The position numbers and the translations under genes were made by a program. The notes under the pieces were generated by a model, which worked only from the letters and a program-made list of their open reading frames with translations, was not told the origin of the DNA and did no database searches. From Lachnospiraceae bacterium V9D3004 (GTDB lineage Bacteria > Bacillota > Clostridia > Lachnospirales > Lachnospiraceae), in assembly GCA_000621985.1 (NCBI GenBank), contig JHWW01000021.1, positions 1-40,172 on the forward strand: DNA of 40,172 nt, given 5' to 3'. Of the stretch, positions 1-33,592 are shown piece after piece. How positions within the stretch are numbered: the first letter of the stretch is position 1; each line of letters starts with the position of its first letter.

Positions 1-29
1 CGGGCTGCTTCGCATCCCCGTCTGTTCCG
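1..29. repeat. R1-like flanking fragment at the window edge
   Basis: Bases 1-19 repeat exactly the 19-nt stretch found inside R1 copy A at 77-95. The following TCTGTT is also found just upstream of copy B (33323-33346), after the same TTCGCATCCCCG. So either R1 extends leftward beyond its outer stem, or a degenerate neighbouring copy is cut by the window edge. Confidence 0.5.
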
Positions 30-49
30 GGATATATACTGGAGATCTT

Positions 50-231
50 ATTCACAGTCCTCCCACAAGCCACAGCCGGGCTGCTTCGCATCCCCCGCAG
101 CTTCGCTGCTCATGGCTGTGGCTGCGGGAGCGGTTCCTGTTTCACAGGAACCTTCTGCCTCGCTCATACAAGTCTGCTTCTTACGAGCAAGCTCGACGAA
201 TCAGGCTTGCATGACCTCGGCGACTGTGAAT
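50..231. repeat. R1 structured repeat, copy A (182 nt)
   Basis: This is a palindrome-rich, non-coding 182-nt unit. The outer stem is ATTCACAGTC (50-59) with GACTGTGAAT (222-231). Inside are a stem pairing CTCCC and GCCACAGCC with GGCTGTGGC and GGGAG, a small GCAGC/GCTGC hairpin, a hairpin of nine pairs (GGTTCCTGT/ACAGGAACC, 132-152) and a hairpin CGAGC/GCTCG (184-195). A second copy of identical length lies at 33348-33529. The copies differ in many stem positions, but both sides change together. The unit ends about 137 nt before the start codon of the sugar-phosphate transferase gene. It could be a mobile palindromic element or a cis-acting RNA. A short ORF across it is a by-product. Confidence 0.85.
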
Positions 232-368
232 AGTAACTTTGATGAAACACATTATAGTTTTGATTTGTGTTCACTTTGTGAAGATAAAAAGTTTATATTG
301 TGAAATTACCGATTATCGGTTATTATGTAATTCATAGGGATACACATTTTTTGAAAGGACAACCCGAT

Positions 369-2859: not shown

Positions 2860-4341
2860 TCAGTTCTTAAGTTTCTCTGCAAGAACGCGAAGCTCTTCAG
2901 TCTGAACTGTAAGAGTATCTATGGTATTCTCGCTTACTTCGCAGGATTCCCTCGTTGATGATGTCTGTGCAGCGAATTCTTCCGATATCGCGGATATCGT
3001 CTCGACGCTTCCCATAATAACTCTGTTGGCCTCTGTAAGTTCGCTGACCGTATCATTAAGAGCTTCGGAACTCTTCCTGATATTGGTTGCATTAACTGCG
3101 ATCTGCTCGAAGCTTTCTGCCGTACTACCCACTACTTCATTCTGCTTCTCGATCTGTTCGACCATATTGGCCATTATCTCAACAACTTTATTGATCTCTT
3201 CGGATACATTCCTTATAAGTCCTTCGATATTGACGGTAGCTTCCGATGTCTGTGATGCAAGTCCTGAGATCTCGGATGCAACTACTGCAAATCCACGTCC
3301 TGCTTCTCCTGCTCTTGCCGCCTCTATTGACGCATTAAGCGAAAGAAGACTTGTCTGTGATGTAATATTATTGATGATCTCAAGAATGGAGAACATCTGC
3401 GAAGTATAATCTTCAAGTGCTTTAAGTTCACCTGTTACCTCTTCGTTAGTCCTGGTAGTGACCGTACCCTGTTCCATAAGAAGCTTGATATTCTTATTAC
3501 CATTGTCGATCGCTTCAAGTGTCTGCTTCATATTGGCCGCTATATCGTCAGCAACGCCGCCCACATCCTGAATCTTACCTGCTATGGCCTCAGTCTGTTC
3601 AAGCTGGTTCTGAGCCGCTTCAGCTGCGTCAGAAGCCCCATTTGCTATATCTACCATAGCTCTTCCGGTGTCTCTTATAGACGTTCCAAGTTCATTTACA
3701 CCATTATTAACGATCTCAATGTTGTTGGTAATATCAGATGATACCGACATGATCCTGTCGAGAAGTTCTTCAGAGGTGTGCTTCTCTTCCTCGATCTTAA
3801 CAACATCCTTCTTCGCAAGCTTTGATGCCACTATCGTCGCGTATGCCGAATAAGCACATATCATTATCATTACGATAACCTGGATCTCCGACGTAGCCGA
3901 CTCGGTCGCATCGAATCCGTCCTGTCCGTATACAATTATTACATATGCAAGGTTAGTCAGAACTACCGCAATTCCGACCTTAATTGAAAGACTACTGTCA
4001 TTGTAAACGGTCATGGCAACCATTACCGGTATTATGTATACAAATGTAAGTACATTAGTGGATGTAAAAAGAACGATTATGTACAGCACGCAATATCCCA
4101 ACAAGCTCAATATCTGTGTAACTTTACTGTCCTTCTTTGCATTATACAGGATCGTGGAAATGATAGTCGGAACCGCACCTACAACAAGTATAATGAAAAA
4201 GTATGGTAATTCCTTGGATCCTTTGACTACTTCAAGCAGATAAGCCAATATGATTATACTGACGGTTATCTGCACACATCTGAGCAAAACCTTATTCGCG
4301 CTCGCCATCTTAACATTAAAACCGGTGTTATTCTCTTCCAT
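2860..4341 (-). CDS. Methyl-accepting chemotaxis protein with a six-helix membrane sensor
   Basis: This is a chemoreceptor that signals through CheA/CheW to the flagellar motor. The 493-residue protein starts with about six closely spaced membrane helices (roughly residues 15-185) and no sizeable extracellular ligand domain. A long cytoplasmic coiled-coil signalling domain follows, with the conserved hairpin tip [17 protein letters not shown] do not see a clear HAMP domain. Such receptors may sense membrane state, energy or a small molecule within the bilayer. The start ATG at 4341 follows GGGGGACATT. It converges on the LCP gene with only 38 bp between, where a weak inverted repeat (CTGATACA/TGTGTCAG) might act as a two-way stop. 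No other chemotaxis gene is in the window. Confidence 0.93.
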
Positions 4342-8625: not shown

Positions 8626-8670
8626 CGAAAAACAATAAAGGATCTTTCTGCGAAAACACAGAAAGATCCT
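8626..8670 (-). terminator. Attenuator-like intrinsic terminator in the L10 leader
   Basis: On the minus strand AGGATCTTTCTG, a short loop and CAGAAAGATCCT form a perfect 12-bp stem, followed by TTTATTGTTTTTC. It lies downstream of the L10 binding region and upstream of rplJ, so it could stop transcription when L10-L12 is bound. A further small hairpin (8617-8636) overlaps its T-tract and might compete with it. Confidence 0.75.
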
Positions 8671-8691
8671 GAAAATTATCATCTTCGTCTT

Positions 8692-8752
8692 TCCTCGGCA
8701 GGCGGATCCGTATCCATTATACATACTGTACCTGCTGTCTTCGGCAACAACG
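8692..8752 (-). ncRNA. Ribosomal protein L10 leader
   Basis: On the minus strand, GTTGCCGAAGACAGCAGG and, about 25 bases later, CCTGCCGAGG form the conserved kink-turn-containing L10 leader core. The two AGCAGG/CCTGC strands pair to close the arm. The leader lies directly behind a strong promoter and ahead of rplJ, which is the standard position for binding by the L10(L12)4 complex. Confidence 0.88.
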
Positions 8753-8759
8753 CTTTATC

Positions 8760-8788
8760 ATTCTATTACATATAATAATATATGTCAA
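8760..8788 (-). promoter_or_regulatory. Promoter of rplJL
   Basis: The minus strand has TTGACA (8783-8788), a 17-base spacer and TAGAAT (8760-8765). The predicted start near 8753 places the L10 leader at the very 5' end of the transcript. Confidence 0.85.
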
Positions 8789-33299: not shown

Positions 33300-33347
33300 C
33301 TTCGCGCATCCTTTCATACTAATTCGCATCCCCGGCTTGTCTGTTTC

Positions 33348-33529
33348 ATTCACAGGTCCCGATAAGCCGCAGCCGGGCTGCTTCGCATCCCCCGCAGCTT
33401 CGCTGCTCATGGCTGTGGCCATCGGGGGAGGTTCCTGCTTCACAGGAACCTCTTGCCGTGTACAAAAAACCCTGCTTCTTACGTGCGAGCACGACGAATC
33501 AGTCTTGCATGTACACAGCCCCTGTGAAT
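33348..33529. repeat. R1 structured repeat, copy B (182 nt)
   Basis: Its length is identical to copy A. The outer stem is ATTCACAGG/CCTGTGAAT. The inner helix pairs CCCGAT with ATCGGG where A has CTCCC with GGGAG. The small hairpin is CGTGC/GCACG (33482-33493) where A has CGAGC/GCTCG. GTGTAC pairs with GTACAC where A has TCAT with ATGA. The GGTTCCTG/CAGGAACC hairpin is unchanged. It separates the histidine kinase stop from the GT2 start, so it would lie in the GT2 leader if transcribed through. The plus-strand orientation equals that of copy A, while the flanking genes are on the opposite strand. Confidence 0.88.
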
Positions 33530-33592
33530 AGTAACATAATTCAGTATATTTTATCATATTAAAAATATTGCCGCAACAAAAAAAGATATCAC

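What the first reader, a model, noticed from the sequence alone, without database searches (positions are those of the whole stretch)
50..231. R1: a 182-nt structured repeat whose helices covary between copies (copy A)
Two copies of exactly the same length lie 33 kb apart. Where they differ in a stem, both strands change: CGAGC/GCTCG against CGTGC/GCACG, CTCCC/GGGAG against CCCGAT/ATCGGG, and GACTGTGAAT against CCTGTGAAT with its partner. This is the signature of selection on the folded form, not just spread of a DNA palindrome. I do not match it to a known riboswitch or ncRNA. Candidates are a structured mobile element, a bacterial interspersed mosaic/palindrome family or a cis-regulatory RNA. 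It lies directly before a surface-glycan gene.
Basis: partly seen in the sequence, partly recalled or inferred. Interest (0 to 1): 0.85.

Follow-up and report, generated by a model that had tools for sequence, protein, structure and literature searches.

The report
Mobile DNA element with conserved fold
The repeat is an old copy of a small mobile DNA element that appears to hitch-hike on a transposon's enzyme across gut and rumen bacteria, and its whole interior keeps one elaborate fold in many genera, so it can look like a regulatory RNA without behaving like a gene switch.

Summary
Both copies are 189 nt (49-237, 33347-33535) and fold far better than shuffles. Two copies alone show covariation only weakly; with 18 genome copies 27 of 50 pairs have kept double changes, and across other genera 46-48 of 50. 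It is not a private RNA gene: 39 distinct places in the genome match its model, and the family runs through Lachnospiraceae and some neighbouring families. Its ends are a terminal inverted repeat, GTTACTATTCAC(A/G)G, flanked in intact copies by an 8-bp target duplication. In Schaedlerella arabinosiphila the same 14-bp ends bound 2.2-2.5 kb insertion sequences with an IS66-family transposase and 8/8 duplications, beside intact R1 copies. R1 is therefore best read as a MITE mobilised in trans by IS66-type transposases. The window's genome showed only an IS66 relic, and its copies look old. Flanking genes show no preferred orientation, which speaks against cis-regulation. Unusual is the deeply conserved junction fold of the core. 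Two moderate signals (wobble bias; sub-threshold resemblance to Rfam Clostridiales-1 RNA) mark the reverse strand as RNA-like. Why the fold is kept is open.

The parts
49..237 (+). R1 copy A, whole element as it stands (left outermost 5 bases GTTAC replaced by GATCT)
   Evidence: alignment of 18 genome copies, model match 185.6 bits, left end read
224..237 (+). right terminal inverted repeat of copy A, CTGTGAATAGTAAC; the last 16-17 bases of the element equal the ends of the Schaedlerella IS66-type elements
49..57 (+). what remains of the left terminal inverted repeat of copy A, TATTCACAG; pairs with the right end as the closing stem
60..130 (+). lobe 1 of copy A: stem CCACAGCC/GGCTGTGG carrying two small hairpins with TTC loops (GAA on the other strand); limits approximate
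   Evidence: fold, pairs (helices 3-7)
132..152 (+). middle hairpin of copy A, GGTTCCTGTTTCACAGGAACC
   Evidence: fold, helix 8
156..222 (+). lobe 2 of copy A: long interrupted stem; limits approximate
   Evidence: fold, helices 9-10
184..195 (+). tip of lobe 2 of copy A, CGAGCAAGCTCG (reverse strand CGAGCTTGCTCG)
   Evidence: fold; helix 10, helix 13
33347..33535 (+). R1 copy B, whole element as it stands (left outermost 5 bases GTTAC replaced by TGTTT)
   Evidence: model match 168.4 bits, fold, left end read
33522..33535 (+). right terminal inverted repeat of copy B, CTGTGAATAGTAAC
33430..33450 (+). middle hairpin of copy B
   Evidence: fold
33482..33493 (+). tip of lobe 2 of copy B, CGTGCGAGCACG
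   Evidence: fold

Best explanation
R1 is a non-autonomous mobile DNA element (a MITE) of about 190-200 bp. An IS66-family transposase encoded elsewhere recognises its terminal inverted repeat GTTACTATTCAC(A/G)G and inserts it into AT-rich intergenic DNA, duplicating 8 bp. Shown here by sequence: the inverted repeats, the 8-bp duplication, multiple copies, and identical 14-bp ends and duplication length on IS66-type insertion sequences in the same chromosome as intact R1 copies. Inferred: that this transposase moves R1. In the window's genome the family looks inactive: no intact IS66 transposase was found and the copies are 69-87% like their nearest relative. Between the ends lies a core that folds as a closing stem with three branches (lobe 1 with two hairpins, a middle hairpin, lobe 2 with a conserved tip). 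That fold is kept by selection on nucleic-acid pairing across many genera. My guess at why (inference): when a copy lies in a transcript, the reverse-strand RNA folds into one compact domain, which protects the element or its host transcript or is bound by a host factor, so the element can sit in either orientation beside genes at little cost.
For: Flush 8-bp duplication: in 59 copies mean identity of the flanking 8-mers 0.559 against 0.290 shuffled (0 of 2000 as high), other lengths near background except slight excess at 6 and 10; in 78 exact-TIR elements of named records 0.769 against 0.303 (0 of 2000), 47 of 78 with 7 or 8 of 8 (lengths 6, 7 and 9 also exceed the shuffles slightly). 32 TIR pairs with 7-8 of 8 duplications in the loci then held, 0 in the same loci read backwards. 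Schaedlerella chromosome: exact TIR pairs spaced 2458 bp (4 times), 2176 bp (3), 4375 bp (2) and 195 bp (4); the seven elements of 2458/2176 bp and the three fetched of the four 195-bp ones have 8/8 duplications. Their long ORFs match DDE_Tnp_IS66 (E 1.3e-10, 3.8e-15) and NCBIfam IS66 family transposase (150.8 and 154.0 bits, under its 180 cut-off). Copy A's end matches those IS ends over 16-17 bases. Of 100 stretches found by TIR pair alone, 83 carry the R1 fold at E<=1e-6. Fold conservation.
Against: Movement was not observed. PF03050 was found in only 4 of 11 R1-bearing genomes searched, and in the window's genome only as a 91-residue fragment, so in most hosts the partner is absent, too diverged or in an assembly gap. 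The IS66-type element of G306 has variant ends (GTTACTGTTCAGGG) without duplication (2/8), and the G101 loci show no such ends. In the window's genome only 2 of 16 copies whose ends were placed keep a duplication of 7-8 of 8, and neither window copy does; 11 of 19 have lost the left GTTAC while 19 of 19 keep the right GTAAC, an asymmetry this account does not explain. The purpose of the fold is a guess.
Confidence: 0.9

Rival explanations
1. R1 is primarily a functional structured RNA (reverse strand), distantly related to Rfam Clostridiales-1 RNA, that happens to be carried by transposon ends: a mobile non-coding RNA.
For: Covariation in helices far inside the ends. At consensus pairs, A-C mismatches (which are G-U on the reverse strand) outnumber G-U 56 to 37 by events, while unpaired sites show the opposite, 28 to 48 (Fisher p 0.003). 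Alignment-free count in 155 elements: A-C 75, G-U 47 (p 0.014). RF01699 matches 8 of the 25 R1-bearing loci scanned at E<=1, in 8 of 8 cases on the strand opposite to R1.
Against: All eight RF01699 matches are below the gathering score of 48 (22.0-39.7 bits), four come from one genome, and the shared part is mainly the long hairpin with the GCUUGC tip. Strong RF01699 hits (102.7 and 126.3 bits) in 2 of 57 loci scanned at gathering lie outside the TIR-bounded elements. The wobble bias is modest, rests on related copies, and one genome (G139) runs the other way. No transcript evidence. No fixed gene orientation.
Confidence: 0.25
2. The pairing is kept by DNA-level processes: hairpins or cruciforms in single-stranded DNA during replication or transposition, or template switching that repairs one arm from the other, without any RNA function.
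For: The element is a DNA transposon passenger. The reverse strand carries GCGAAGC-type loops, which I recall to be very stable in single-stranded DNA. Both strands fold strongly (for DNA).
Against: It predicts no difference between G-U and A-C mismatches, whereas A-C is in excess. It does not explain the conserved unpaired parts and the lobe-2 tip across genera.
Confidence: 0.4
3. A cis-regulatory RNA (riboswitch or leader) of the adjacent glycan genes.
For: Copy A lies 131 bases before the start of a sugar transferase gene (window 369).
Against: No orientation preference in 73 copies, unrelated neighbours at copies A and B, many copies per genome, transposon ends with duplication, no Rfam gathering match in the window.
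Confidence: 0.03
4. A REP/BIME-like palindrome moved by a Y1 (IS200/RAYT-type) transposase on single-stranded DNA.
For: Palindromic intergenic repeat; Y1_Tnp genes occur in the genome (4 matches, all at contig ends).
Against: An 8-bp duplication is present; Y1_Tnp was not found in 3 of 8 R1-bearing genomes (G139, G235, G011); the IS200-like element's ends differ (read).
Confidence: 0.02

Closest known systems
IS66 family insertion sequences (Schaedlerella elements L325-L331 here)
   Same: Identical 14-bp ends GTTACTATTCACAG and 8-bp target duplication.
   Different: R1 has no ORF-sized coding content and its interior shows no match to these ISs beyond the ends in the 30 best hits printed.
Bacterial MITEs: BOX and RUP of Streptococcus pneumoniae (passages of PMC3049150), Correia, Chunjie, QMITE2 (passages of PMC10969869)
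   Same: Short, terminal inverted repeats, target duplication, tightly folded with the ends paired to each other, ends shared with an IS, mostly intergenic, multiple copies.
   Different: In the passages seen these are described within single species or close groups; R1 keeps one fold with covariation across many genera and several families. IS66 as the partner does not occur in the text of PMC10969869 (find).
Clostridiales-1 RNA (RF01699; listed in Table 1 of PMC2864571 as a probable RNA, not cis-regulatory, Clostridiales and human gut)
   Same: A closing stem with several branches, a long lobe with a GCUUGC-type tip, same host order, opposite strand of R1.
   Different: R1 stays below the gathering score; the two strong instances seen lack R1's ends.
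REP/BIME palindromes with Y1 (RAYT-type) transposases
   Same: Interspersed intergenic palindromes.
   Different: R1 has an 8-bp duplication and shares its ends with a DDE-type IS.

Membership tests
MITE of the IS66 family | Short (<500 bp) and without a transposase gene | tested here: met
   169-202 nt in the 18 own copies aligned; interior unrelated to the IS beyond its ends
MITE of the IS66 family | Terminal inverted repeats | tested here: met
   GTTACTATTCAC(A/G)G at both ends in relatives; in the window's genome right end intact (>=4/5 outer bases) in 19 of 19, left in 8 of 19
MITE of the IS66 family | 8-bp target site duplication | tested here: met
   for the family; in the window's genome 2 of 16 placed copies keep 7-8 of 8, neither window copy among them
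MITE of the IS66 family | Ends shared with an autonomous IS66 element | tested here: met
   14 of 14 identical ends in Schaedlerella; transposase PF03050
MITE of the IS66 family | Partner transposase in the same genome | tested here: not met
   Window's genome: only a 91-residue PF03050 fragment; found in 4 of 11 R1-bearing genomes searched. Present in Schaedlerella. I treat this as loss of the partner, not as exclusion, since MITEs often outlive it (recalled)
MITE of the IS66 family | Mobility in trans demonstrated | not testable with these tools
   needs an experiment or strain comparison
Clostridiales-1 RNA (RF01699) | Score at or above the curated gathering score (48 bits) | tested here: not met
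   window: no match at gathering; best R1 matches 39.7, 35.7, 34.5 bits
Clostridiales-1 RNA (RF01699) | Branched architecture on the same strand | tested here: inconclusive
   similar branched folds and tip, 8 of 8 sub-threshold matches on R1's reverse strand
IS200/IS605 or RAYT-REP element | No target duplication; presence of a Y1 transposase | tested here: not met
   8-bp duplication; Y1_Tnp not found in 3 of 8 carriers
Cis-regulatory RNA | Constant orientation upstream of regulated genes | tested here: not met
   26 with, 24 against, 12 divergent, 7 convergent, 4 undetermined on one side, of 73 (simple ORF calls)

The most novel reading that the evidence does not exclude
R1 is a mobile non-coding RNA: IS66-type transposon ends have captured a branched structured RNA (encoded on the strand opposite to R1 as drawn), akin to Clostridiales-1 RNA, and selection on that RNA, not on the DNA ends, has kept its fold across Lachnospiraceae and neighbouring families. 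The candidate RNA class Clostridiales-1 and the R1 MITEs would then be the resident and the mobile branch of one RNA superfamily.
Probability: 0.2. Interest if true: 0.8.

Novelty: new variant of a known kind. Interest (0 to 1): 0.5.

Why it matters
Covariation is often read as proof of a functional RNA. Here a covarying fold of RNA quality sits inside transposon ends with target duplications, in many genera, so motif catalogues built from covariation may contain mobile elements, and some mobile elements may carry selected RNAs. The TIR, the duplication and a named culturable host (Schaedlerella arabinosiphila DSM 106076) that holds both the IS and intact R1 copies make trans-mobilisation and the purpose of the fold directly testable. 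It also warns annotators that such copies beside glycan genes are not regulatory switches.

Tried and rejected
Rfam at gathering: only an L10 leader in the window. A Y1 (IS200-like) partner: genes present but with other ends, and not found in 3 of 8 carriers. An autonomous partner in the window's genome: 20 solo TIR sites fetched with about 3 kb inward showed no transposase-sized element with paired ends; solo sites in three relatives likewise (one search listed 66 loose TIR pairs against 5 in the backward control, none convincing). The partner appeared only when a complete named chromosome was searched. The 1820-bp TIR pair in L263 and the 1233-bp pair in L313 were dropped: the first has two mismatches and shares an R1 end, the second is two separate small elements. 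Clostridiales-1 as the identity of R1: below gathering, so kept only as a possible relative. Literature: searches for the TIR letters, MITE with Lachnospiraceae, Roseburia/MITE, 8-bp duplication with Clostridium, IS66 with MITE, and structured RNA with transposable element listed no description of this element (listings only; the library lacks most subscription papers). PMC3733652 and PMC4666352 do not mention the Lachnospiraceae genera asked for (find). PMC2864571: passages and section 4 (Table 1) seen, its additional files not. PMC10969869, PMC3049150 and PMC2267715: passages only.

Full report
What is there. The window is the whole of contig C19 of a 3.42-Mb draft genome. The repeat occupies 49-237 and 33347-33535, both 189 nt, 157 of 190 aligned columns identical. 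Both fold with z-scores of -9.29 and -7.14.

A genome-wide family. BLAST with copy A found 29 matches in the genome. A covariance model from 18 full copies found 41 matches at E<=0.001, two of which are the opposite strand of places already listed, so 39 places; 150 of 808 first-look candidates were scored. Nineteen score 148 bits or more; most of the rest are truncated. In the genus 5 of 10 genomes match at E<=0.001, the window's own included. In the family 53 of 299 match at E<=1e-5, own included, with strict filters and at most 8 candidates scored per genome. In the order 21 of 295 match: own, 9 of the same family and 11 in four other families, several of these weak or partial, the best 1.2e-16. 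Genome G306 of the same family as the window's has contigs of the same lengths (43162 and 56905 bases) as two records titled Lachnospiraceae bacterium RGIG5021, so the window's organism is a member of that family; its own record was not named by any search.

The fold is conserved. In the 18 copies, 27 of 50 pairs have kept double changes (0 of 500 shuffles as high; slid versions 2-8). In 63 rows from many genera (5 own) it is 46 of 50 and 661 cells, against 185 in shuffles; in 86 distinct rows from named records 48 of 50 and 980 cells against 284. Slid versions reach at most 129 cells. The alignments are fitted to the model, which favours it, but the excess is several-fold. The architecture is a closing stem made of the element's ends, lobe 1 with two small hairpins, a middle hairpin, and lobe 2 with a tip whose reverse strand reads like CGTGCTTGCACG.

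It is a mobile DNA element. Many relatives have GTTAC at the left of TATTCAC to match GTAAC at the right. Directly outside these ends, 8-bp direct repeats occur: mean identity 0.559 against 0.290 in shuffles over 59 copies; lengths 4-5, 7, 9, 11 and 12 sit at or near background and 6 and 10 slightly above (69 of 79 copies had placeable ends, 60 passed the end-mismatch limit, 59 had flank enough). A joint search for ends plus duplication gave 32 elements in the loci then held and none in the same loci read backwards; sizes were 54, 142, 152, 171-200, 235 and 303 bp, so other small elements use the same ends. Of 100 exact-end stretches, chosen without regard to their interior, 83 carry the R1 fold.

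The likely mobiliser. On the Schaedlerella arabinosiphila chromosome exact ends are paired at 2458 bp (four times), 2176 bp (three), 4375 bp (two) and 195 bp (four, one on another contig). The 2458- and 2176-bp elements have 8/8 duplications in 7 of 7 cases, and the three fetched 195-bp elements in 3 of 3; the 4375-bp ones are the 2458-bp type with another DDE transposase gene inside and have no matching duplication (2/8). The long ORFs of the first two types (587 and 519 aa) match DDE_Tnp_IS66 and the NCBIfam IS66 transposase model at 150.8 and 154.0 bits, under its cut-off of 180; a small upstream ORF (121 and 135 aa) has no Pfam match. The last 16-17 bases of copy A are identical to their ends; no R1 interior matched them in the 30 best hits printed. 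Against a simple story: PF03050 was found in only 4 of 11 R1-bearing genomes, and in the window's genome only as a 91-residue fragment, beside which the end-like sequence GTAACTGTTCAGG can be seen by eye. The IS66-type element of G306 has variant ends and no duplication, and two IS66 loci of G101 show no such ends.

State of the window's copies. Copies in this genome are at best 69-87% like their nearest relative, 2 of 16 with placeable ends keep a duplication, and the left outer 5 bases are kept (4 of 5 or better) in 8 of 19 against 19 of 19 on the right. The same tilt is seen in G139 (3 of 7 against 7 of 7), much less in others (8/8-8/8, 7/9-8/9, 7/9-8/9, 17/21-20/21). I cannot explain this asymmetry.

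Context and strand. With simple ORF calls, 73 copies show no orientation preference (26 with, 24 against, 12 divergent, 7 convergent, 4 undetermined). Copy A lies 131 bases before a sugar transferase (Bac_transf), copy B between a histidine kinase and a family-2 glycosyltransferase, both read against R1. At paired sites within five genomes, A-C mismatches exceed G-U by 56 to 37 events (p 0.06 on its own), while transitions at unpaired sites go the other way, 28 to 48 (Fisher p 0.003). Counting isolated mismatches in helices folded without G-U pairs and required on both strands, 155 elements give A-C 75 and G-U 47 (p 0.014), with the named set alone 42 and 26; G139 runs opposite (0 and 6), and at least two rows of the named set are in reversed orientation. 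Copies are related, so these p-values are too small. Taken at face value they make the reverse strand the RNA-like one.

Relation to Clostridiales-1 RNA. Of 25 R1-bearing loci scanned at E<=1 (7, 18), 8 gave an RF01699 match on the R1 element, always on the opposite strand, at 22.0-39.7 bits (gathering 48; E from 2.7e-5 to 0.81); four are from one genome. Most of the score comes from the long hairpin with its tip. At gathering, 57 loci held two RF01699 hits, both away from the R1 element and without its ends. So R1 is not a member by the curated threshold; a distant relation is open. Weinberg and colleagues list the motif as probably RNA and not cis-regulatory (Table 1, PMC2864571).

How it works. 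Shown: ends, duplication, copy number, shared ends with an IS66-type IS in one chromosome, conserved fold, no fixed gene orientation. Inferred: the transposase acts in trans on R1; the family is dormant here. Unknown: whether the fold serves transposition (DNA), protection of transcripts or an RNA function. I hold the MITE reading at 0.9, DNA-level and RNA-level reasons for the fold at about 0.4 and 0.25 as additional, partly compatible claims.

Noticed in passing
window 1-56 and L010 (contig C23) 1501-1563: The last 26 bases of contig C23 equal the first 26 of the window, and window 1-56 matches C23 at 98%: a tandem part-duplication of R1's left side probably broke the assembly, so C23 and C19 likely abut. 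The C23 gene read divergently looks like an HtrA-type protease by eye (not scanned).
   Followed up: partly
own genome, loci L009, L013, L024, L025, L027 and L016, L023, L029: Half copies: five hold lobe 1, ending in or near the middle hairpin, and three hold lobe 2 with or without that hairpin, as if the middle hairpin were a preferred breakpoint.
   Followed up: no
own genome, full copies: Left outer bases GTTAC kept in 8 of 19 copies but right GTAAC in 19 of 19; the same tilt in G139 (3 of 7 and 7 of 7). Unexplained; one-ended decay or one-ended transposition are ideas.
   Followed up: partly
L321:5331-5947: A 617-bp element with perfect R1-type ends and a 7/8 duplication, no Rfam match at E<=1, and long inverted segments seen by eye: possibly a larger structured passenger of the same transposase.
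   Followed up: no
L187, L190, L195, L197 (genome G067): A separate 142-bp element family with the same ends and 8/8 duplications: several small passengers share this transposase signature.
   Followed up: no
L332, L333 (Schaedlerella chromosome): The 2458-bp IS66-type element carries a second DDE transposase gene (PF01609) inserted in it, and its two copies have unmatched flanks.
   Followed up: partly
L210:2993-3157 and 3199-3280: A strong Clostridiales-1 RNA with a partial second copy close behind it, just upstream of what reads by eye as an ileS gene: this RNA class too may duplicate or move.
   Followed up: no
window 8628-8762, minus strand: A ribosomal protein L10 leader (RF00557, 60.6 bits).
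   Followed up: no
G000:C2 end, C8 start, C16 end, C17 start: IS200-like Y1 transposase genes cut by contig ends, with ends unlike R1's.
   Followed up: partly
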